This document shows positions 29,430 through 40,399 of a DNA stretch of 64,000 bases, piece after piece. A program made the position numbers and the translations under genes. A model generated the notes under the pieces. It did not search any database. It worked only from the letters and a program-made list of their open reading frames with translations, and was not told the DNA's origin. The DNA comes from Pseudomonadales bacterium (GTDB taxonomy: Bacteria; Pseudomonadota; Gammaproteobacteria; Pseudomonadales; Ketobacteraceae), in NCBI GenBank assembly GCA_002708905.1, contig PAPM01000002.1:110593-174592 (forward strand), given 5' to 3'. Position 1 is the first letter of the stretch; every line of letters starts with the position of its first letter.

Positions 29430-29717
29430 CTAATAAAAATGTTTTACCTCGCCATAAGGTCTGAGGGCACCAACCACATCACCCGGTCGTTCATCATCCG
29501 ACGAATATTTCGGTAGTTCAATTTTCGTAGAATAAGAGGCATACTTAAAATACTTCACTAAAATGCTATCGTTGATTCTTAACAGTATGCTAGAAAGCCG
29601 ACTATGGTCGACCGATGTATACACAAGATTTGGGGAGTAGGCTCGAAAGGTACTGGGAAGGACCAAATTGGCCAATAGAAAGTTTGTAGACACAGACATG
29701 CTATAAACCACATACAT
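29430..29717 (-). CDS. Possible small protein or gene remnant, 95 residues
   Basis: A 95-codon minus-strand frame starting at ATG 29717, with no convincing ribosome binding site. The product (VLPSTFRAYSPNLVYTSVDH near residue 20, ending RPYGEVKHFY) has a protein-like composition. Its start is only 31 bases from the divergent gene at 29749, which leaves little room for two promoters. It could be a fragment of a lost gene or a chance frame. Not recognised. Confidence 0.25.
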   Translation of the reverse strand: MYVVYSMSVSTNFLLANLVLPSTFRAYSPNLVYTSVDHSRLSSILLRINDSILVKYFKYASYSTKIELPKYSSDDERPGDVVGALRPYGEVKHFY

Positions 29718-29748
29718 AATTTCATTTTCACTTCGATGGGGATAAGTC

Positions 29749-30780
29749 GTGGAAAATAGATTGACCGTTAGTTTTTTATGTTCCTACATCATCATTGCAG
29801 CTTATTTTTTCATTCATCCTTCTATAAGTTTTGGGCAAGAGTCATGTGATTCGGTTCTCTTAGCAAAGACTGTTACCGTTATGCAATCGAGTTCAAAATC
29901 AAAACTCGCATGGCTACAGTTAATTAATAGCTCTAACTATGAAGAGGCTAAGAAAAATTATTCGGCTCAAGTGCCTGGCTACTTCAACGGTTCCTATAAG
30001 GACTTTTCGGTTAAGAGAAGCGAATATTTTTCCAAGGAGTCATATAGCCAAAACACAGAAGAAGCAAGGGCAACGCTAAGTATTTCTACGCCTCCCGAGA
30101 ATGTAAGTGCATGGCGTAGTTGTGTGCTTGCGAATTCTGGAGGTCTGTCACATGTAATAGAGCATGTGAGTGAAAGTTCTGCAACCCTTATTGTAGCTTG
30201 GAATCCGCCGCTAGGCTCGGGGGAAATCACTGAACTCTCCCTATTTCTCGACGGTGGTTATGTGTTACAAACTCTGCCAACCACACTTCTTGGGCAACGA
30301 TCAGTAATCATTAGCCGTGACGAAGTAAACAAAGGGGTTAGCGGGACAATTTCCGGGATAGTAAATGGAGTATCATATACAACGACACTTTATATCCCTG
30401 CGACACCTAATCCGCCGCCGCCGTGCAACAGTAAGAACCGTACAATATCTGTCGATGTAGGCGCTAACATGTTCGCTATAGCGCGCATTCCAGCTAGTCA
30501 ATGTGATCGCAACATAAATGTCCGGGTAGTAGCTAGGGCAATATATGAAACTCCAGGGGATCCATGGGTTTCGCTCGAGGTTAAAATTCCTGGCATTATT
30601 TCTCCATGGAACAGCGGTAGGCTCGGCGTGCCCGCAGAGTCACCAAGCTATCGTGATGCGAAGTTCAACCAAACTATAAGTTTACCCGCTGGTCAATCGA
30701 TGGATGTAATTGCAAACACAGCTAACTTCCGTGCCAAAGCAGACTTTCTTCGCATTGAGGCAGATATCACGGAACCCTAA
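29749..30780 (+). CDS. Exported protein of unknown function in AT-rich island
   Basis: A 343-residue protein starting at GTG 29749, with GGGGAT seven bases upstream. A signal peptide (VSFLCSYIIIAAYFFIHPSI, then SFGQ) directs export. The middle holds a PPENVSAWRSCV segment and a beta region LIVAWNPPLGSGEITELSLF; a Pro-rich linker (PATPNPPPPCNSKNR) separates a C-terminal beta-sandwich-like domain of about 115 residues with two cysteines (PCNS, SQCD) that may form a disulfide. No catalytic motif was recognised. It is the first of four + strand genes leading to the caspase-like gene. Confidence 0.6.
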   Translation: MENRLTVSFLCSYIIIAAYFFIHPSISFGQESCDSVLLAKTVTVMQSSSKSKLAWLQLINSSNYEEAKKNYSAQVPGYFNGSYKDFSVKRSEYFSKESYSQNTEEARATLSISTPPENVSAWRSCVLANSGGLSHVIEHVSESSATLIVAWNPPLGSGEITELSLFLDGGYVLQTLPTTLLGQRSVIISRDEVNKGVSGTISGIVNGVSYTTTLYIPATPNPPPPCNSKNRTISVDVGANMFAIARIPASQCDRNINVRVVARAIYETPGDPWVSLEVKIPGIISPWNSGRLGVPAESPSYRDAKFNQTISLPAGQSMDVIANTANFRAKADFLRIEADITEP

Positions 30781-30891
30781 GAATTCATACTTGAAAGTAT
30801 ACTAACGTGCCCGTACTGGCGCTTGTTATTGATAGTTAGGTGATTTGAGTGATTAAGCTGAAGATAATGAAGATTATTAGAGGAAATAAAT

Positions 30892-31305
30892 ATGGCTGAA
30901 AGTAGTGCTGTGAAGCAAATAACTGTGGGAGTAGCGATAATAGTGATTGCTGGTGTTTTAACTTTTTTTGGCAGAGAAATTTGGATGTGGTGTTGCGAGA
31001 CTCCTGAACCTGTTCTGACTTCTACATCGGTTAGAATATTTCGAGTAGATCCAGATAATCTGTCTAGATGTGAACTAAAAAATCCTGTTCAGATTATGTC
31101 GGATGGCACTCAATTGGGCTTGGTCGCAACTGACCTAAGGAAGAGCGCAGTTATATTGGTATTTTTTCCTAATGGTGCTACACATATTTTGAATGGAGTA
31201 GGATTGAAACCGGTTAGCATACCTAAAACAAATGTAATTCTATCCGCAGCTTCACTCGCTGAAATTGATGAGTGTTCGGTACGAATAAATCTGTCCATAA
31301 AATGA
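30892..31305 (+). CDS. Small single-pass membrane protein in AT-rich island
   Basis: A 137-residue protein starting at ATG 30892 (GAGG upstream). Residues about 9-28 (ITVGVAIIVIAGVLTFFGRE) form one membrane helix followed by WMWCCETPEP. The rest, about 100 residues, is a small beta-rich domain (ILVFFPNGATHILNGVGLKP), probably on the periplasmic side. The family was not recognised. It lies 111 bases after the secreted protein gene and 71 before the next membrane protein gene, so it is probably part of the same unit as the caspase-like gene. Confidence 0.55.
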   Translation: MAESSAVKQITVGVAIIVIAGVLTFFGREIWMWCCETPEPVLTSTSVRIFRVDPDNLSRCELKNPVQIMSDGTQLGLVATDLRKSAVILVFFPNGATHILNGVGLKPVSIPKTNVILSAASLAEIDECSVRINLSIK

Positions 31306-31376
31306 GATGAAACCGCAATTTTTAATGCTAGTTTAAAATAGGATAAACTAGAAATCATATCCCACTTTATAAGTAC

Positions 31377-31847
31377 ATGACATTGGATAAAATTCAAACA
31401 TCAATAGTTCTGTTTTGTATGACAGCATATGCTATACACTTGGCAGGTGACGTTTGGCGATATAGAAACTATAAATATAACCTACTGCAATTCACCGCGC
31501 TTGCTGTTGTCTTTTTGGTTTTGGCTTGGTCATCCGGATTTCCATTTCCGAGAATCTCTTTTGGAAGCACTTCATCTGAAGCCACTTTAGCTGCAATGTT
31601 TGTTTCAATTGTATTAGGCATGATATCCAACTACATTTTTTTTAACGATACTTTTTCATTTAGACAATGCGTCAAACCAATTCTAGTCTCTCCGATTCTT
31701 TTAATGCCCCTATACAGCCTTGTTGAAGGCTCATCTAAATTTGAAAGCATCAAGGTAGCCTCACTATGCTTGATTTCTTATCAAAACGGTTTTTTCTGGA
31801 AAATATTTTTTGAGAAAATAGAGGATGCCATTAGAGATGAAGGTTAA
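31377..31847 (+). CDS. Multi-pass membrane protein in AT-rich island
   Basis: A 156-residue, very hydrophobic protein with about four membrane helices (IVLFCMTAYAIHLAGDVW; FTALAVVFLVLAWSSGF; AAMFVSIVLGMISNYIFF; ILVSPILLMPLYSLVEG). Its 3' end overlaps the start of the caspase-like gene by 11-23 bases, so the two are likely translated together. It resembles no transporter family I know; its layout suggests a membrane partner for the peptidase. Confidence 0.6.
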   Translation: MTLDKIQTSIVLFCMTAYAIHLAGDVWRYRNYKYNLLQFTALAVVFLVLAWSSGFPFPRISFGSTSSEATLAAMFVSIVLGMISNYIFFNDTFSFRQCVKPILVSPILLMPLYSLVEGSSKFESIKVASLCLISYQNGFFWKIFFEKIEDAIRDEG

Positions 31848-33456
31848 CGACTTATCTTTTCTTCTTCTTCTTTTTCCGGCTATTTGTTTAGGTAACGAAT
31901 CAAAAATACTCCCTGAATATAAAAAGTACTTTATAAAATACTCCAATGAGAGGAGCATCTTCTCAGAAAAAATAGCTCCGAGATTTGGAGGAGCAAAAGT
32001 CGGAAGAAGCTTCGCAATTATTGCTGGAGTATGGGATTATGAATTCGGAAACCTTCCTCCGGCAAAGGCCGACATGGAAGAACTAAAAAGCTACCTCCTC
32101 AATGAGGAGTATTTTGATGAAGTTGTTTTTCTAAAGAACTCAGAAGTAAACTACAACAACCTAAAATACTTTTTGCAATATTATTTCAAGAACCGATTGA
32201 ATGACTATCCACAATCAAGATTTCTATTTGCGTATAGTGGCCATGGCTTTTCAGATGGCGATGAAGGTTATTTAGTAAAATCTAGTGCTACACACCTTCG
32301 AGATTTCAACAACAGTATTGGAATGGACGTGCTTCGCCCACTGATACAAAAAGTTGTTAATAAGTCACACCACACGCTTGTTCTAATTAATGCATGTCAT
32401 TCTGGAACATTTTTTGGAAGCAGCTTTGGAAGCAAGCAATATTTACCAAGAAAAACCGGTGCTCATGCAATCACCGCAGGTGGATCAGATGAGGAAACGT
32501 TTTCAATACCATCTTTCGGAAAAGGTAGTCTTTTTTTTGAGGTCTTTTTAGACGGCGTTAGAGGGGGGGCAGACTTCTACCCAATTGGTGGTGATGGAAT
32601 CATTACTTTCAATGAAATCTTTGGATATATCCATAACAATGTTGCGGAACAAACAACCTCTCAAACCCCAAGAGAAGGCGATTTAAGACCGAGGGGAAAT
32701 AAAAGCGAAGGAAGCTTTTTCTTTATCGACAAAGATGTCGAAATACTAGACGTGAGTATAATAGATACCCTGATCGACCAAATCACATTTGGAAATAATA
32801 TTCCCAAGCCTACCGTTAAAAACTTAGCTCTATCTGTAGAGCGCTTAGAAGACATTGAATCTTTCGATTTTAATAAAGAAAAATCACTTAGGGAGGACGT
32901 CGAAAGCCGATCCCATAAAAGTTTAGATGACGAAGAGTACTTTATGTTTATCCCAGACGGAGGGAACTTTGGGGGAGATAGAAGATTTATGACGGGTAGA
33001 GAAATTGAATTTATACAAAGGGTTGAAACAAAAACTAGTTTTCTTGCAGGAAGTCCATGCGAGCTAAACGTTATTAAAGTTGAAGATTATTCCGTACCTA
33101 AAGGACCAAAAGAGGCTAGAGATAAAACAACTGTCTATAAAAACACATATAATTACACGGTAGACCTAACCAAACCCCTTTGGATTAGTGAGGATGATGA
33201 ATATAGGGATGGTTATCGGTTATTTAATGTTAGAAATCTCTCGGAGGATGGCTCAAGCGCAATAATGGAGTCATCTATTGTCCACAACAATGAAGGTATA
33301 CCGCGAAAAAAAACATTTAAAGTATCAGAGTACGGCTTTCAAATTTCGTATGATTTTCCAGTTCCAGAAGTTCCAGAGTTATCCATATCAAAGTTGAACG
33401 AGATCTGCCTAGGTCAAGATTTGAAAAAATTAAAAATCACATCGCCTGAAAAATAG
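31837..33456 (+). CDS. Exported caspase-like (peptidase C14) protein
   Basis: A 539-residue caspase-fold protease. A signal peptide (LSFLLLLFPAICLG) precedes the catalytic domain, so it acts outside the cytoplasm, unlike most bacterial caspase-like defence effectors. The p20-type domain starts GRSFAIIAGVWDYEFGNLPP; the catalytic His is in LFAYSGHGF and the Cys in LINACHSGTF, followed by GAHAITAGGSDEETF. Residues about 300-539 form an unassigned C-terminal region that is not a known NTPase. The ATG at 31837 gives the cleanest signal peptide; an ATG at 31825 is possible. It overlaps the four-helix membrane protein gene and converges on the ATPase gene at 33497. Cleavage is usually after Arg or Lys in this family; substrate unknown. 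Confidence 0.82.
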   Translation: MKVNDLSFLLLLFPAICLGNESKILPEYKKYFIKYSNERSIFSEKIAPRFGGAKVGRSFAIIAGVWDYEFGNLPPAKADMEELKSYLLNEEYFDEVVFLKNSEVNYNNLKYFLQYYFKNRLNDYPQSRFLFAYSGHGFSDGDEGYLVKSSATHLRDFNNSIGMDVLRPLIQKVVNKSHHTLVLINACHSGTFFGSSFGSKQYLPRKTGAHAITAGGSDEETFSIPSFGKGSLFFEVFLDGVRGGADFYPIGGDGIITFNEIFGYIHNNVAEQTTSQTPREGDLRPRGNKSEGSFFFIDKDVEILDVSIIDTLIDQITFGNNIPKPTVKNLALSVERLEDIESFDFNKEKSLREDVESRSHKSLDDEEYFMFIPDGGNFGGDRRFMTGREIEFIQRVETKTSFLAGSPCELNVIKVEDYSVPKGPKEARDKTTVYKNTYNYTVDLTKPLWISEDDEYRDGYRLFNVRNLSEDGSSAIMESSIVHNNEGIPRKKTFKVSEYGFQISYDFPVPEVPELSISKLNEICLGQDLKKLKITSPEK

Positions 33457-33496
33457 TAGCATCATTAAGACAGAAGTTTAATTGTTAGACCTCTTT

Positions 33497-35017
33497 TTAC
33501 AACAAGTCCCTACCGCATTGACGGCATACAGGCTCTTGGCCTTCAGGGTATAATTCGATATTGATAAGATTGTCTGTTAAACAGTGCTCACATGGGAGCC
33601 AGCGATCCTGAATGAATTTCTCAAAAGGAACAACTCTATGCATCAATCGCACGACGCAAGGATCGATTACAGCATACAAGTGTGTTGGCCTTGTTGCCGG
33701 GGGTACAACTACACTACCCACTTGAGAAACCATTCCAACGTTTACCCAGCCAGTAATTTTGTTGCGAGCACCGTTAGAAGATATTTTTAGTATGCTATTA
33801 GCAACATAATTGGTTGTAAATAACTCGTTTCCAACTCGCTGAATTTCACGGATTACTCCTTCACCATAATGCTCGATGCTTAGTTGTTCACTATGATCTA
33901 CAGAGGCTTGGTCAATCGAATATTGGCTTATTTTATTAGAGTCTGGGTCTCTCGCACCTTGTATCGCTAAAATTTTTTCACAGAGTCTGATCAAATTCCT
34001 AGGAGATCCATTTGCGAGTAGACATAGCTTTTCGTCTATATTTGATTTAACTTCTAATAGGTAGTCAAAGCTCTTTATGTCACCATTACTGAACGCTTTT
34101 AAACGTTTGGAAAGGACATCTACTAGATTTTTTCTTGTCCATTTTAGCTCGTACTGGGGAACTCTATCAGGTCTCGCGTCTTCTCTAAAAAATGGTTCAA
34201 TTTTATCCCAAAGAAAGAACTTAAACCCGTAGCCTGGAAGGCCAAGCAATTCTAGATCCTTTATCAATGGTTTTATTAACTGATAGGTTGCTTCAGGATT
34301 GTTTCCTGTTTTCTCAGTTTCGTCAGGCCTATCTATGAGAACATAAATCGATTTAAATCCGATCTTCTTAACTAGCTTTAGAAGTGTTTCAAGTTGAAAC
34401 TTGTATGTTTCCCCAAGCCTTTTCTCCTCTTGCTTAACATCAGGAAGGTCAACACTTTCTAGATCGTAGTTCTTCAATAGAAAATTAATGGCTGACTCCA
34501 TAAAGCCGACATTTTGCCTCCAAAAGTCTTTGAATTTATCTGGGAGGCTTTTTAATTCGTTTAGCACTTCTTGGATTTCATCACCAGTTAATTCACCCAA
34601 GTAGGTGTGTATGAAGATTGACAGTTGCCTTTTTTCATCTTTGGACAAATTCTTTGAGACGTCTGGCCATTCGCTCAAGTAAGACAGAAAAGAAACAAGT
34701 ATCCTAGTAATTACATTCCTAAGATGATATTGGAGAGAAATGTCATCGATATTTTGTCCAGAGCCAAATTCAAATCTATCATAAGTGACAGCAAGGAAGC
34801 CGTACTTGAATGCATTTGCTTCAACCATACGCCTTTGAGCAGTTTTTCCTGCCCCTCTTGGTGCTAGGACGATGGAAGAATTCGGCGAATTTGGATCACC
34901 TAAAACAGCATCAAAGTATGGAGGAGGAACAAAATATTCTTTTAGCAGATCCTCTTCATCTGCGTTAGTCTTTAGAAATGGATGTGACTGAAATCCTAAT
35001 TTTTCAAAAAGTGACAA
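33497..35017 (-). CDS. P-loop ATPase with C-terminal zinc ribbon
   Basis: A 506-residue cytoplasmic NTPase. It opens LGFQSHPFLKTNADEEDLLK, then YFVPPPYFDAVLGDP and the Walker A LAPRGAGKTAQRRM (Lys58). A Walker B-like strand SIYVLIDRPDE puts Asp229 in place, and GSPRNLIRLCEKI resembles the sensor/arginine-finger region of AAA/STAND ATPases. The end carries four cysteines, CEHC (476-479) and CRQC (498-501), a likely zinc ribbon for nucleic acid or protein contact. Start is TTG 35017 with AGGAG six bases upstream. The family resembles P-loop ATPases frequent in defence islands, but I cannot name it with certainty. It is the last gene of a three-gene minus-strand unit. Confidence 0.75.
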   Translation of the reverse strand: MSLFEKLGFQSHPFLKTNADEEDLLKEYFVPPPYFDAVLGDPNSPNSSIVLAPRGAGKTAQRRMVEANAFKYGFLAVTYDRFEFGSGQNIDDISLQYHLRNVITRILVSFLSYLSEWPDVSKNLSKDEKRQLSIFIHTYLGELTGDEIQEVLNELKSLPDKFKDFWRQNVGFMESAINFLLKNYDLESVDLPDVKQEEKRLGETYKFQLETLLKLVKKIGFKSIYVLIDRPDETEKTGNNPEATYQLIKPLIKDLELLGLPGYGFKFFLWDKIEPFFREDARPDRVPQYELKWTRKNLVDVLSKRLKAFSNGDIKSFDYLLEVKSNIDEKLCLLANGSPRNLIRLCEKILAIQGARDPDSNKISQYSIDQASVDHSEQLSIEHYGEGVIREIQRVGNELFTTNYVANSILKISSNGARNKITGWVNVGMVSQVGSVVVPPATRPTHLYAVIDPCVVRLMHRVVPFEKFIQDRWLPCEHCLTDNLINIELYPEGQEPVCRQCGRDLL

Positions 35018-35092
35018 AAGATGCTCCTATATACTCGCAAGATTGCTTTTCCTACTACAGTTGGTAGCGCAAATACCTTCCTTAAAAAGTTC

Positions 35093-35722
35093 TTATGCTT
35101 TGGGCACAACTGCGCTTTGTTCGGACATTTTTATATCCATTATCGCCGATATATAAGTCCTAACAGCGCTACAAATAAGCAATATCCTCTGGAATTCATA
35201 GTTGAACACTTTATATTCATCTAATTTCCCTTTTTCGTAAAAGTACCGCCATGTTTCAAATGCATCGCTTGACCTAACCAGCACTGATTTTATATCAACA
35301 GGTCCCGTACTCCCGAGACTTGGCTCTGGGCCAATGGGTTTCTCTTTGCCGACGTAAACAACAACCTGAACTGCTGCTAACTTTTCGTCATCTACTTCGT
35401 TTTTCTCTTTATATACTGAACGTATTCCTTCTTGTATCTCTAATGGAAGTGTTTTAAATAAAGTCCATAAATGATGTGTTTGATTTACTTCATTTCCCAC
35501 GAGCATATGTAGACACTTCAAATATAGTTCCAGCGATAAAGATAGCATTGTGGCGGAAGATATAACTGAACTGATCGAGTATAATGAATATGTACGTGAG
35601 GAATCTGCACTGTCTTTTAGTGCCTGCCTTATATACACTTGTGCGTGTGCATTGAATTGATCAGCAGATGCTAAAGCCATTCTTGTATCATAGTGCTTCT
35701 TTTCTTTCTTCTTTCGAGACAT
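35093..35722 (-). CDS. HEPN-like helical protein
   Basis: A 209-residue, mostly helical protein. The segment LSLELYLKCLHMLVGN followed by QTHHLWTLFKTLP matches the EL.LK..L...G...THdL..LF..L pattern of HEPN proteins, many of which are RNases or nucleotide-transferase partners in conflict systems. I do not see the canonical R-x4-6-H catalytic motif, so it may be catalytically inactive or a divergent member. Start is ATG 35722 with no strong ribosome binding site. It lies between the DUF4062 gene (53 bases away) and the ATPase gene (75 bases). Confidence 0.6.
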   Translation of the reverse strand: MSRKKKEKKHYDTRMALASADQFNAHAQVYIRQALKDSADSSRTYSLYSISSVISSATMLSLSLELYLKCLHMLVGNEVNQTHHLWTLFKTLPLEIQEGIRSVYKEKNEVDDEKLAAVQVVVYVGKEKPIGPEPSLGSTGPVDIKSVLVRSSDAFETWRYFYEKGKLDEYKVFNYEFQRILLICSAVRTYISAIMDIKMSEQSAVVPKA

Positions 35723-35775
35723 TAAGAAATATGCCTATTCATATATAGGTGAACTAGGTTGTGTGAACCACTATG

Positions 35776-36624
35776 TTACAGGGACTCTGCCACGGTCCAT
35801 CCTTCATGAGTTAACTCAAAGAATTCACCTTTGTGGCCACGCGTTGTTACAAGACTATTAGATACTAACGTATTCAAAGCCGACTCCCACCTAGTGAACT
35901 CTTTACGGTTTGTTTTACCAAATGACTTGCCACCCGCTTGAATTTCTTGGCCACCAATATACTCAACCTTCATAATTGAACCATACTCATCAGATGAGGC
36001 AGCCTTCAATAATGAAATAGAATCTTCAGTTAAGCTATAAGAATTAGCTCTGGTTATATTTGGAATCTTCTGGATTTCTGGAACATAGTCGGCTTCAACA
36101 ATAAGATCGTTAATATATTGATTTTTATTCAAACAAAGCTGAAACTGTTTGGAAAGTTTTTGCCTAAATTGTTCTAGCGTGTCATACGTTTCCACTAGTC
36201 CACGTTGCTGCCAGTTTGATCTTGCTTCTCTAACTCTTTTATATTGTTCTGCATCTATGCTCTCAGGAGATACAGGCTTTGATGAAAAGTAGATCATCGC
36301 TGGTTTCCCTGCAGCCACGTGTTCCTCTATTTCTTCAACAGTGCCACTTAACGCTTTTCCTGTTGGAGTCCCCAATCGCGTCCAGAAGATGCCTATTAAA
36401 ATATCGCAATATCTTAGTACTCTTTGATTTATCAGCTCTTGAGGTCTAGCCCCAAGCTCAGGTGAAGAATGAGAGTCCCAGCCAACTGCAGAAAGCATAA
36501 TTTTGGACTTTTCAGAATTAATATCATTCCAGTCGTGAATTATTTGCCGGGTTATGTCTCTTTCCTCCGATACATCTCCTGGCGAGGCAATCATCACGGG
36601 TAATACTGTAGCTTTGTAAGCCAC
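35776..36624 (-). CDS. DUF4062-domain protein with C-terminal winged-helix-like region
   Basis: A 282-residue protein starting at GTG 36624 with AAGGAG six bases upstream. Residues 1-120 have the DUF4062 signature VMIASPGDVSEERDITRQII, then INQRVLRYCDILIGIFWTRLG, TGKALSGTVEEIEEH and GKPAMIYFSS. This fold resembles TIR and nucleoside-deoxyribosyltransferase-like domains and often heads STAND NTPases. The C-terminal 80 residues (RWESALNTLVSNSLVTTRGH, FELTHEGWTVAESL) look like a winged helix. It is the first gene of the minus-strand unit with HEPN and ATPase genes, and could be the sensor or effector of a three-part system. The biochemical activity is not established. Confidence 0.75.
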   Translation of the reverse strand: MAYKATVLPVMIASPGDVSEERDITRQIIHDWNDINSEKSKIMLSAVGWDSHSSPELGARPQELINQRVLRYCDILIGIFWTRLGTPTGKALSGTVEEIEEHVAAGKPAMIYFSSKPVSPESIDAEQYKRVREARSNWQQRGLVETYDTLEQFRQKLSKQFQLCLNKNQYINDLIVEADYVPEIQKIPNITRANSYSLTEDSISLLKAASSDEYGSIMKVEYIGGQEIQAGGKSFGKTNRKEFTRWESALNTLVSNSLVTTRGHKGEFFELTHEGWTVAESL

Positions 36625-36840
36625 TTAGTTCTCCTTATACTGTAAGCAAGGTGAATTGAGCCCTTCGAAATATCCAAATACAGTATGTTGTAGACAAATC
36701 TATCAAAAGCGCTGCATTCGTAATACTTAGATCCGCTTTGGCCAGAACTTACGTGATATCCAAGGATGAAAGCAGAAATCCTTCAGTATACCCCTTAAGC
36801 AACACCGGAAGTTCCAGTATCCACATTAATAGTCTTTGTT

Positions 36841-36911
36841 TAGTAGAAGCTTGTCTACTACTAATGTAACTAATGCAACGCAATATGGGGGGCTGTAAAC
36901 AGCTACCCCCC
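36841..36911 (-). terminator. Tandem hairpins at the end of the ABC exporter operon
   Basis: GGGGGGCTGT (36887-36896) pairs with ACAG (36899-36902) and CCCCCC (36906-36911), overlapping the TAG stop codon of the minus-strand ABC gene. A second stem TAGTAG (36841-36846)/CTACTA (36855-36860) lies farther downstream on that strand. No long T-run follows, so termination efficiency is uncertain. Confidence 0.5.
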
Positions 36912-38645
36912 AACCTGCAACTGATACAAATGCCGATACAACCCCTCCACCCCCAACAACGCCCGATGCCCACCCACCTGCACAATCTCCCCCTGATGCA
37001 TTACCAGAATGCTATCGGCCTGGGTAATGGTCGAAAGGCGATGGGCGATCACCACCAGGGTGATGTCGCCTTTTAGTTGCAGCAGGGATTGTTGGATTTG
37101 TGCTTCGGTGGCGGAATCCACGTTGGCGGTGGCTTCGTCCAGTACCAGTATTTTGGGTTTGCCTGCCAGGGCGCGGGTCAGGGACAGCAGTTGGCGTTGG
37201 CCTACAGAAAGCGATCGCCCCTGTTCATCCAGAATGGTGTCGTAGCCTTGGGGCAGTTGTTCAATATGCTGATGGAAGCCGGTGGCCCGTGCGGCCGCTT
37301 CGATTTCTGTGCGGGGCAGGTTGCGGCCGATGTCGATGTTGTCGGCTACGCTGGCGGCCAGCACAAAGCTGTCCTGTTGTACGATGGCAAATTCGCGGCG
37401 CAGTGTTTCATGAGATAGGTTGGCAAGGTTTTGTTCGCCCAGTTGGATGTGGCCTTGGTCCGGTTGGTAGAAGCGCAGCAGTAAGCTGGCGATGGTGCTT
37501 TTGCCGCTGCCGGTGTGGCCGACGATGCCGATGAACTCGCCACTGTTGATGTGAAAGCTCACATTTTTCAATACGGGTTTGATGCCGTCGTAACTGAATT
37601 GTACGTGGTCAAAGCGGATGTCTGCCGGTTTGGGTTCGATGGGGTTTGATTGTGTTTCGGTATGCGTTTCAGGTTTCTCGTCGATCCAGTGGAACACGCG
37701 CTGGGCGGAGACCATGGCCTGTTGGAACAGGTTGAGGCGTTGGGTCATTTCGATGAGGGGTTCGCTGAAGCGCCCCAGGTAATTCAGAAAGGCGTAGATC
37801 ACCCCCACTTCGATCACGGCGCCGGTGGATTCCAGGTGGTTGATGCCGAACAGGTAGAGCAGGCCCGCCAGGGTGAGCAGTTGCAGCATGTCCACCATGG
37901 GGCGCAGCAGCAAAGCGTCCATCTGCATGGTGCGGCGGCGGGTTTTGAAATGGGCTTGCACAGTGTCGCTGTAGTGGCGGGCAAAGAATTGTTGTTGGCG
38001 AAACAGTTGGATTACGGCCACGCCCTGGATCATTTCGTTCATGCGGGCGTTGATGTCCGACAGCAGTTCCCGCGCTTTCTGGAACACCGGTGTGCTCAGG
38101 CGGCGATAGGCGATCATGACGGTGATCACCGCCGGCAGAAACAGTAAGCACACCAGCATCAGGCGCCAGTCCAGCACGGCCATGGCGATGAAGATGCCCA
38201 ACACCCGCACGCTGTTCTGGATGTAGATGCCCAGCACGCCCACAAACAGTTCTTTGACGGATTCGGTGTCGTTGGTGATGCGGGAGATCAGGCTGCCGGT
38301 GGGCGTGTAATCAAAGCGCCGCAGAGGCAGCGATACCACGCGGGCAAAGATCTGGTGGCGCAGGGTGCGCACGACGTTCTGGGCGATCTGGTTCCAGAGG
38401 ATGGTCTGGCGATAGCTGAGGCTGGCGGCCAGGATGGCGGCGGTGAGGTAGGCAACCAGCATCAGGCCGATGTCCGGCGCGGACCAGTGATTGGGGATCA
38501 GGTAGCCGTCGATAAAATGTTTGATCAGCAAGGGGCCCACCACGTCGGCGGCGGTGGCCAGTAGCAGCAGGATCACGGCTCGGGTGAGGATGGGGCGATG
38601 GTCGAGGGTGTAGCGCAGCAGGCGGACGAAGGTGTTTTGCGTCAT
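36903..38645 (-). CDS. mdlB: ABC exporter half-transporter (MdlB-like)
   Basis: A 580-residue type I ABC exporter half: about six membrane helices in the first 310 residues, then an ATPase domain. Walker A is GHTGSGKSTIAS; the signature is LSVGQRQLLS, departing from the canonical LSGGQ; Walker B is ILVLDEATANVD with the catalytic Glu present. It overlaps the partner gene at 38642 by four bases (ATGA). In heterodimeric exporters one site carries the changed signature and the other the changed Walker B, as seen here between the two halves. MdlAB-type exporters move drugs or lipids; the substrate is unknown. Hairpins at its stop codon are likely the operon end. Confidence 0.85.
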   Translation of the reverse strand: MTQNTFVRLLRYTLDHRPILTRAVILLLLATAADVVGPLLIKHFIDGYLIPNHWSAPDIGLMLVAYLTAAILAASLSYRQTILWNQIAQNVVRTLRHQIFARVVSLPLRRFDYTPTGSLISRITNDTESVKELFVGVLGIYIQNSVRVLGIFIAMAVLDWRLMLVCLLFLPAVITVMIAYRRLSTPVFQKARELLSDINARMNEMIQGVAVIQLFRQQQFFARHYSDTVQAHFKTRRRTMQMDALLLRPMVDMLQLLTLAGLLYLFGINHLESTGAVIEVGVIYAFLNYLGRFSEPLIEMTQRLNLFQQAMVSAQRVFHWIDEKPETHTETQSNPIEPKPADIRFDHVQFSYDGIKPVLKNVSFHINSGEFIGIVGHTGSGKSTIASLLLRFYQPDQGHIQLGEQNLANLSHETLRREFAIVQQDSFVLAASVADNIDIGRNLPRTEIEAAARATGFHQHIEQLPQGYDTILDEQGRSLSVGQRQLLSLTRALAGKPKILVLDEATANVDSATEAQIQQSLLQLKGDITLVVIAHRLSTITQADSILVMHQGEIVQVGGHRALLGVEGLYRHLYQLQVGG

Positions 38646-40399
38646 CTCCCTTCCTCCACCGCCTGTTCAATCTGCTGATAGCGCACCATTTGCGCGTACC
38701 AGCCGTTGTGGGCCATGAGTTCGGCATGGCGGCCTTGTTCGGTGGGTTGGCCCTGTGTCAGTACCACGATGTGGTCCGCCTGTTCCACGGCGGTGAGCCG
38801 GTGGCAGACGATGATGGCGGTGCGGTTGTGGCGGGCCTGTCGTAGATGCCGCAGGATCTGTTGTTCGGTGGCCACGTCCACGGCGGACAGGGCGTCGTCC
38901 AGTATCAGCAGCGGCGCATCCATCAGCAGAGCGCGGGCGATGGCCAGCCGTTGTTTCTGGCCGCCGGAGAGGGTAATGCCCCGCTCCCCCACCAGGGTTT
39001 GATAGCCGTTGGGAAAGGCCAGGATGTCGTGGTGCACGTTGGCCAGTTGGGCGGCGTGGTGGATCTGTTGTTCGGTGGCCTCCGGATTACCCAAGGCGAT
39101 GTTGGCGGCAATGCTGGTGGAAAACAAAAACGATTCCTGGGGTACGACCACCATGTGGCGGTGTAGTTCTGCCAGGGGGAATTGGTGCAGGGGGTTTAGA
39201 TCGAATTGGATGTTAGCGTCGGGCGATTCGTATTGGCGCAGCAGCAGGCGGATGAAGGTGGATTTGCCTGATCCGGTAGGCCCGACGATGCCCAGGGTTT
39301 GGCCCGGTTGGAGTTGGCCGTGAAAGTTTTGCAGTACGGTTCTGGTTATTTGGTCAGAGTGTTCCGGATAGCTGAAGCGGTTTATGTTCCATTCCAGTAC
39401 GGCGTTGGGGGTGAGGGTTTGTGTTCCAGCATCAACTATATCCGGCTCAGTCTGCATAATCGCATCCAACCGTTGCCAGGCCACCACGCCCCGCTCCATC
39501 AGATTCAACAACCAGCCATAGGCGAACATGGGCCAGATCAAAAAGCCCAGATACAGGGTAAAGGAGGTGAGTTCGCCCACGCTGAGTTGGTTGTTGTGAA
39601 TCAACCAGGCGCCATAGGCCACCGCCAGCAGAAAGGAGCTGCCGGTAGTGAGAAAAATCACCGGATCGTATTTGGCTTCGGCCCGCGCCACCTGCATGTT
39701 GGCGTTACTGGCGGCCTCGGCGGCGTGGTCGAACTGGTTACTGGCCAGTTGCTCCAGCCCATAGGCTTTCAACATGCGAATGCCGCTGATGGATTCCTGG
39801 GCGCGATCGTTGAGGTCGCTGAAGCGGGCCTGGGCCTGTTCAAACCCGGCGTGCAATTCCTTATTGATGCGCATGAACCAATACGCCATCAGCGGCCAGG
39901 GCAACAGGGCTACTAAAGTCAGCTGCCAGTGGATGGCGAACACCAGCACCAACAGCACCACAATGCCGGTGAGGATGCCATCGAACAGCGCCAGCATGGC
40001 TTCCCCGGCAAACATTTCCACCGCGCTGACGTCGTTGGTGGCGCGCGCCATCAGGTCACCGGTTTTATGGCGTTGGAAAAAGCTCGCAGGTAAACGCAGC
40101 AGGTGATCGTGAAAGCGTTGCCGCAGGATGGCCCCCAGTTGATAGGAAGCACTGTAGAGGGAGAGCCGCCACAGGTAGCGGAATACGTACACCAGTAGCG
40201 CGACTATTGCTATCAAGCCCAGTTGTTGGAACAGTTGTGTGGAAGTGAGGGTATCGTTGGTTGCGGCGTCCACAATGCGCCCGGTGATCCAGGGCGGCAG
40301 CAGATTCAGCAACGCCACCATGATCAGCAACAGCATGGCGACAGTGTAGCGCCGCCACTCGCGGCGGAAATACCAGCTTAGTTGGGTGAACAGCCACAT
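38642..40399 (-). CDS. mdlA: ABC exporter half-transporter (MdlA-like)
   Basis: A 585-residue partner of the MdlB-like gene. The membrane domain starts with LLLIMVALLNLLPPWITGRI and has six helices; the ATPase domain has GPTGSGKSTFI, the canonical signature LSGGQKQRLAIARALL and the Walker B LLILDDALSAVD, where Asp replaces the catalytic Glu. That substitution is typical of the non-hydrolytic site of heterodimers. Start is ATG 40399. It is the first gene of the exporter pair and follows the mrp operon by 25 bases, so read-through from mrpG is possible. Confidence 0.85.
   Translation of the reverse strand: MWLFTQLSWYFRREWRRYTVAMLLLIMVALLNLLPPWITGRIVDAATNDTLTSTQLFQQLGLIAIVALLVYVFRYLWRLSLYSASYQLGAILRQRFHDHLLRLPASFFQRHKTGDLMARATNDVSAVEMFAGEAMLALFDGILTGIVVLLVLVFAIHWQLTLVALLPWPLMAYWFMRINKELHAGFEQAQARFSDLNDRAQESISGIRMLKAYGLEQLASNQFDHAAEAASNANMQVARAEAKYDPVIFLTTGSSFLLAVAYGAWLIHNNQLSVGELTSFTLYLGFLIWPMFAYGWLLNLMERGVVAWQRLDAIMQTEPDIVDAGTQTLTPNAVLEWNINRFSYPEHSDQITRTVLQNFHGQLQPGQTLGIVGPTGSGKSTFIRLLLRQYESPDANIQFDLNPLHQFPLAELHRHMVVVPQESFLFSTSIAANIALGNPEATEQQIHHAAQLANVHHDILAFPNGYQTLVGERGITLSGGQKQRLAIARALLMDAPLLILDDALSAVDVATEQQILRHLRQARHNRTAIIVCHRLTAVEQADHIVVLTQGQPTEQGRHAELMAHNGWYAQMVRYQQIEQAVEEGR

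What the first reader, a model, noticed from the sequence alone, without database searches (positions are those of the whole stretch)
29430..36700. AT-rich island with caspase-like, HEPN-like, DUF4062 and P-loop ATPase genes
Seen: the composition falls sharply here (for example 18 of 60 bases are G or C at 32101-32160, against 35 of 60 at 38101-38160). The genes fall into two converging units: four on + (secreted, two membrane, caspase-like) and three on - (DUF4062, HEPN-like, P-loop ATPase). Known: each of these modules is common in bacterial conflict and programmed-death systems. Inference: one or two acquired defence or signalling systems. I recognise no described system with this combination, in particular an exported caspase.
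Basis: partly seen in the sequence, partly recalled or inferred. Interest (0 to 1): 0.85.

Follow-up and report, generated by a model that had tools for sequence, protein, structure and literature searches.

The report
Exported caspase and phage-defence gene island
A 7-kilobase AT-rich stretch of a bacterial chromosome carries, on one strand, relatives of two recently reported anti-phage proteins and, on the other, a protein-cutting enzyme of the caspase family that is predicted to be exported and sits beside a membrane-protein gene, an arrangement also found in a Rhizobium plasmid, so caspase-type self-killing would likely operate outside the inner membrane.

Summary
In detail: 29749-36624 has 39.2% G+C (859 same-length windows elsewhere: mean 51.8%, minimum 46.1%), with two converging gene units. 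None of five congeners has close copies of the caspase, ATPase, HEPN or DUF4062 genes, so gain is likely.

Minus unit: a DUF4062 protein laid out like the reported NADase Swarozyc (TIR/deoxyribosyltransferase-type fold, Glu97-Glu98 invariant in 46 rows, winged C-terminus), a HEPN-fold protein without the conserved RNase motif, and an ATPase over the curated cut-off for anti-phage protein DS-41 (478 versus 370 bits). Their relatives were not found together in the limited DNA fetched, so these are probably separate defence genes in one operon.

Plus unit: the caspase is not unique (107 of 120 listed homologues have a signal-peptide-like N-terminus; 116 keep the His-Cys dyad). New is its partner: the membrane gene overlapping it has one relative in 72,556 plasmid records, directly upstream of an exported-type caspase (Rhizobium gallicum). 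In five other rhizobial loci the caspase lies beside, mostly fused to, GH25 lysozyme. I infer an envelope-side caspase controlling a membrane- or wall-damaging partner: a new variant of membrane-linked caspase pairs. Function is untested.

The parts
29749..30780 (+). P1: predicted secreted 343-aa protein, no known family; G+C 0.445; membership in the plus unit uncertain
   Evidence: no family; no plasmid match
30892..31305 (+). P2: 137-aa protein with one N-terminal membrane segment, no known family
   Evidence: no plasmid match
31377..31847 (+). P3: membrane protein, 156 aa, three strong hydrophobic segments; partner gene of the caspase; relative directly upstream of an exported-type caspase in Rhizobium gallicum
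31837..33456 (+). P4: caspase-family (C14) protease with predicted signal peptide, His136-Cys187 dyad (539-aa reading), C-terminal about 240 aa of its own; its start overlaps the end of P3 by 11 bases. A further in-frame ATG lies at 31825
33497..35017 (-). P5: P-loop ATPase (Sll1717 / ORC-CDC6-like) with C-terminal Cys pairs; member of NCBIfam DS41_1_antiphage
   Evidence: (478.4 bits, cut-off 370)
35093..35722 (-). P6: HEPN-fold protein, 209 aa, without a conserved R-x4-6-H motif
35776..36624 (-). P7: DUF4062 TIR-like putative NADase (about residues 1-175) with C-terminal winged-type domain (about 200-282)

Best explanation
The stretch is a likely horizontally acquired patchwork of two converging gene units: on the minus strand three genes that would act as separate phage-triggered shut-down proteins (a Swarozyc-like TIR-fold putative NADase, a HEPN-fold protein and a DS-41-type ATPase), and on the plus strand a caspase predicted to be exported, with a membrane partner, which would likely act at the cell envelope. 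Shown: gene order, composition, family membership of P5, conserved dyad in P4 and conserved Glu97/Glu98 in P7, predicted folds of P6 and P7, and recurrence of the P3-P4 gene pair in Rhizobium gallicum. Inferred for P7: the winged C-terminal domain senses a phage structural protein, as reported for the K. pneumoniae protein with the portal, and the N-terminal domain then destroys NAD+. Inferred for P5: an infection-sensing ATPase like DS-41. Inferred for P3-P4: the caspase is made with P3, is held at or near the inner membrane on the periplasmic side, is switched on by an envelope signal read by its C-terminal region or by P3, and then cuts P3 (or frees it) so that the membrane is breached; in the other rhizobial relatives a GH25 lysozyme takes the place of P3.
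Confidence: 0.55

Rival explanations
1. P7-P6-P5 is one three-gene defence system: the ATPase and HEPN protein regulate or add to the NADase-like protein.
For: Same strand, gaps of 53 and 75 bases, similar composition; a P6 relative abuts a HerA-type ATPase gene in an acidobacterial contig (they overlap only if the longest start is right), so a HEPN-ATPase pair occurs.
Against: Relatives of each gene were found without the others: 0 of 22 P7 loci (18 places), 0 of 1 near-full-length P5 place (L037/L095), 0 of 3 P6 loci seen by direct search. The five DUF4062 proteins of the Swarozyc preprint were tested as single proteins, and the DS41_1 homologue in G306 has no such neighbour.
Confidence: 0.2
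2. P4 is an envelope housekeeping or developmental protease (processing of surface proteins), unrelated to defence, that happens to lie beside defence genes.
For: Exported-type caspases of this family are numerous and modular (SEL1, FGE-sulfatase, DUF1566, WD40, TPR fusions); no phage link found.
Against: Patchy: no close copy in 5 of 5 congeners (best 34% identity, E 3.3e-15, in G005) and no match at E 1e-10 in 366 of 369 class genomes; same low G+C as the defence genes; in rhizobia it lies on plasmids with wall-degrading enzymes.
Confidence: 0.25
3. All seven genes are one system, with the cytoplasmic DUF4062 protein making a nucleotide signal that activates the caspase, as in type IV Thoeris (recalled; seen here only as a cited title).
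For: TIR-like and caspase-like genes side by side.
Against: Convergent transcription; P4 is predicted to be exported, so it would not meet a cytoplasmic signal; no fetched locus but the window's own held matches of both P7 and P4.
Confidence: 0.05
4. The island is a neutral stretch of AT-rich foreign DNA with decaying genes and no current function.
For: Species-specific, AT-rich, no conserved ends.
Against: All seven frames are open from start to stop; catalytic residues of P4 and P7 and the P5 family score are kept.
Confidence: 0.08

Closest known systems
Swarozyc, DUF4062 TIR-like NADase (PMC13174449, preprint; outline, passages and part 1 of 2 of the Results read)
   Same: P7 has the same layout: N-terminal TIR-like domain with conserved Glu, C-terminal winged-type domain; single short protein
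DS-41 (DefensePredictor, PMC13092281; passages, outline and figure legends read) / NCBIfam NF053860
   Same: P5 is over the equivalog cut-off, over the whole model
   Different: Gene content of the E. coli DS-41 system could not be checked (supplements not open); neighbours P6 and P7 match no NCBIfam model at E 0.1
[quoted passage not shown] 2020, PMC7159879; section 33 and passages read)
   Same: 5' membrane gene plus 3' caspase gene with variable C-terminal part
   Different: P4 scores 41 bits against a cut-off of 140 for the EACC1-associated caspase; it has a signal-peptide-like start, which would put it on the other side of the membrane; P3 has several membrane segments and not the EACC1 layout. 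A caspase over that cut-off occurs elsewhere in congener G005 (L091, 175 bits)
Bacterial gasdermin with caspase-like protease (recalled; only a search listing and a citing sentence seen)
   Same: protease that activates a membrane-damaging partner encoded next to it
   Different: gasdermin systems are cytoplasmic (recalled); P3 is an integral membrane protein with no family match
Canu caspase-nuclease system (PMC12799240; passages read)
   Same: caspase beside the protein it activates
   Different: no nuclease family was matched by the genes next to P4; the Canu caspase carries an Ig-like fold; periplasm and signal peptide are not mentioned in the main text

Membership tests
Swarozyc (DUF4062 NADase) | DUF4062 domain | tested here: met
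   P7 itself 23.0 bits, just under the 24.7 cut-off, but many homologues 58-68% identical over the full length carry PF13271 in the precomputed column; PADLOC PDC-S60 2.3e-28
Swarozyc (DUF4062 NADase) | TIR-like fold and conserved catalytic Glu | tested here: met
Swarozyc (DUF4062 NADase) | C-terminal helix-turn-helix/winged phage-portal sensor | tested here: inconclusive
Swarozyc (DUF4062 NADase) | NAD+ hydrolysis triggered by phage portal, abortive infection | not testable with these tools
   bench assay needed
DS-41 | DS41_1 ATPase | tested here: met
   NF053860 478.4 bits, cut-off 370, positions 1-448 of 448
DS-41 | remaining gene content of the validated E. coli operon | not tested
   supplements could not be opened; main text names DS-41 once
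HEPN ribonucleases | HEPN fold | tested here: met
HEPN ribonucleases | conserved R-x4-6-H motif (definition recalled) | tested here: not met
   no such motif among the invariant columns of 8 aligned sequences (read by eye)
Caspase family C14 | caspase domain with His-Cys dyad | tested here: met
   PF00656 33.5 bits, cut-off 21.4; H136 and C187 invariant in 11 rows; dyad in register in 116 of 120 homologues
EACC1-caspase two-gene system | EACC1-associated caspase model | tested here: not met
   41.4 bits, cut-off 140
EACC1-caspase two-gene system | 5' gene with a single conserved membrane helix flanked by alpha+beta parts | tested here: not met
   P3 has three strong hydrophobic segments by a hydropathy window
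EACC1-caspase two-gene system | membrane gene directly 5' of the caspase gene | tested here: met
   P3 and P4 overlap by 11 bases
Bacterial gasdermin | gasdermin domain in the partner protein | tested here: inconclusive
   P3 matches no Pfam family at E 0.1; no gasdermin profile was used on its own

The most novel reading that the evidence does not exclude
Exported caspases form an envelope-side self-killing module: the protease sits in the periplasm and, on sensing damage or attack at the cell surface, activates a co-encoded membrane breacher (the P3 family) or wall-cutting lysozyme (GH25), a periplasmic counterpart of caspase-gasdermin lysis of which the searches made here found no description.
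Probability: 0.22. Interest if true: 0.82.

Novelty: new variant of a known kind. Interest (0 to 1): 0.52.

Why it matters
The bacterial caspase defence systems met in the papers seen here are treated as intracellular. A recurring pairing of an exported caspase with a membrane protein, or with lysozyme, would put proteolytic death control at the cell envelope, where phage entry and lysis and attack by rivals happen, and gives a two-gene unit that is small enough to test directly. The minus-strand unit adds a Swarozyc-type and a DS-41-type gene in one apparent operon, a natural place to ask whether such proteins cooperate.

Tried and rejected
Rejected: one seven-gene system (convergent units; relatives scatter). 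Rejected: P4 as an EACC1-type caspase (41 of 140 bits). Rejected: P6 as a clear HEPN ribonuclease (no conserved motif).

Led nowhere: viral scans for P5, P4, the P3 alignment and the caspase alignment; PDB sequence searches (no relevant match); P7 against phage records; P5 against E. coli genomes at DNA level; P6 against plasmids; P1 and P2 against plasmids; promoter and terminator scan no better than shuffles; repeats at the island ends; a search for the G368 caspase in its relatives mostly recovered its FGE-sulfatase half. The flank proteins tested in the genus showed no orthologue-level match except an ABC fragment at a contig end in G002, so the exact empty site could not be shown. The five plasmid matches of P5 (29% identity) were not followed.

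Against the reading: three non-rhizobial plasmid caspases matched by a P4 homologue have neither GH25 nor a P3-like neighbour. Foldseek alone gave no P6 match below E 0.001, and its P7 list mixes GTPases, TIR domains and other Rossmann-type folds.

Counts dropped or limited: of 3008 P7 homologues 120 were listed and 45 aligned; of 227 P4 homologues 120 were listed and 10 aligned. The 120 P4 homologues include one row that the listing marks as the window's own (P0125). The N-terminus count depends on the rule: 103 of 120 with a first rule, 107 of 120 with a second. A first, stricter dyad pattern gave 95 of 120; it missed proteins with Gly after the Cys motif and was widened to give 116 of 120.
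Full report
WHAT IS THERE. Seven open frames form two converging units. P1-P4 lie on plus, P7-P6-P5 on minus with gaps of 53 and 75 bases; 40 bases separate the stops of P4 and P5. No tRNA, Rfam match or convincing end repeat was found, and no frame near the ends was recognised as an integrase (by eye).

ACCESSORY NATURE. The window lies in a 5.4-Mb genome held without a name. In five congeners, P6 and P7 have no match, P5 has none over the family cut-off (a 53-bit match in G003), and P4 has only paralogues in one, G005 (34% identity or less). A protein of the Mrp antiporter operon at 40-46 kb is present in 6 of 6 genomes of the genus, with its neighbours. The DNA after it differs in the four congeners where enough could be read; G002 ends there after a fragment 88% identical to part of the ABC transporter protein of 36903-38645. 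So the region is variable; the exact insertion site was not shown.

MINUS UNIT. P5 matches NCBIfam NF053860, DS41_1 anti-phage protein, over the whole model (478.4 bits, cut-off 370), and also the wider Sll1717 ATPase model. DS-41 is one of 31 further validated systems in DefensePredictor and is reported also from Halobacteria (PMC13092281, passage). Only the window's genome among 293 order genomes, and it and G306 among 369 class genomes, are over the cut-off; 18 of 293 and 24 of 369 have some weaker or stronger match. The G306 gene, 34% identical over 509 positions, has no P6- or P7-like neighbour.

ONE SYSTEM OR THREE? In the DNA fetched, 0 of 22 other loci with a P7 match (18 distinct places), the one place with a near-full-length P5 match and 0 of 3 loci with a P6 match by direct search held one of the other two. 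Many of these loci are about 3 kb long, so this is a limited test. I favour separate defence genes in one operon.

PLUS UNIT. P4 is a caspase-family protein with an intact His136-Cys187 dyad (539-aa reading; invariant in 11 rows). Of 120 listed homologues, 116 keep the dyad in register and 107 have a signal-peptide-like N-terminus, against 45 of 600 internal 40-residue pieces (103 of 120 with another rule). The nearest eight (51-63% identity) match over 54-69% of P4; seven of them end in a Cys-rich tail with the run C-G-C-W-G, while P4's last 240 residues are its own. More distant ones carry SEL1, FGE-sulfatase, DUF1566, TPR or WD40 parts. So the exported-type caspase belongs to a large modular family and is not an oddity.

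The partner is the new element. P3, whose end overlaps the start of P4 by 11 bases, has one match in 72,556 plasmid records at E 0.01 (E 1e-4). It lies on plasmid pRgalIE4872d of Rhizobium gallicum, as a 162-aa membrane protein 7 bases before a 635-aa exported-type caspase, which is itself one of only five plasmid matches of P4. The two membrane proteins align at about 30% over 86-110 residues and share the run I-S-Y-Q-x-G-F-F-W. The chance of such placement is about 7e-7 by a rough count. In the other four plasmid matches, and in a fifth locus found with a P4 homologue, all from rhizobia, the caspase gene lies just after an open GH25 lysozyme frame; four of these five GH25 frames start like exported proteins by the hydropathy rule, the fifth (L139) falls short of it. 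Fusion of the caspase to a GH25 domain is shown by Pfam for two (L106, L107) and by annotation plus sequence match for two (L108, L109); in L139 caspase and GH25 are annotated as two overlapping frames. The remaining three plasmid matches of that homologue (Allocoleopsis, Rippkaea, Runella) have neither partner. These are unrelated to P3 and no control was run.

MECHANISM. For P3-P4, I infer a periplasm-facing caspase whose partner is a membrane protein, with wall lysis by GH25 as the alternative output in rhizobia. The layout resembles the EACC1-caspase two-gene system (PMC7159879, section 33), but P4 fails that caspase model (41 of 140 bits), P3 is not of EACC1 layout, and export would place the protease on the other side of the membrane. 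Cleavage of P3 and membrane breach are untested.

LITERATURE. Searches with words for exported, secreted, periplasmic or extracellular caspases, and for caspase with lysozyme, listed no paper whose title or abstract describes this; passages looked for in three papers on bacterial caspases gave no signal-peptide discussion beyond a Tat-like N-terminus in one. The library lacks most subscription papers, so absence there is weak evidence.

Noticed in passing
This fits a portal-sensing module with exchangeable effector.
   Followed up: partly
L106, L107, L108, L109, L139 (rhizobial plasmids): Exported-type caspase next to a GH25 lysozyme gene and mostly fused to a GH25 domain; L108 has a CHAT-TPR gene and L109 a second caspase gene nearby.
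   Followed up: partly
L088:2642-5578 (Caulobacter henricii plasmid pCB4): A TIR-domain gene directly before a 525-aa protein that begins with a P7-like DUF4062 part; the TIR gene resembles PDC-S66 and ThsB models.
   Followed up: no
L026:8299-10588 (acidobacterial contig MWYY01000044.1): A HerA-type ATPase gene abutting a P6-like HEPN gene, a possible two-gene defence pair.
   Followed up: no
L091:4616-7118 (congener G005): A caspase over the EACC1-associated cut-off (175 bits, cut-off 140) with a small one-helix gene just upstream, elsewhere in the same genus.
   Followed up: partly
P0126 to P0133 (protein ids): Close P4 relatives; seven of the eight end in a Cys-rich CGCWG-type tail, suggesting surface binding.
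   Followed up: no
L087:4031-4837 (Synechococcus elongatus PCC 7942 plasmid): A full-length P7 relative (42.5% identity) on a plasmid of a laboratory cyanobacterium, handy for bench work.
   Followed up: no
window 36903-40399: A two-gene ABC transporter of high G+C (0.59) between the island and the Mrp operon, not found after the Mrp operon in the four congeners that could be read.
   Followed up: partly
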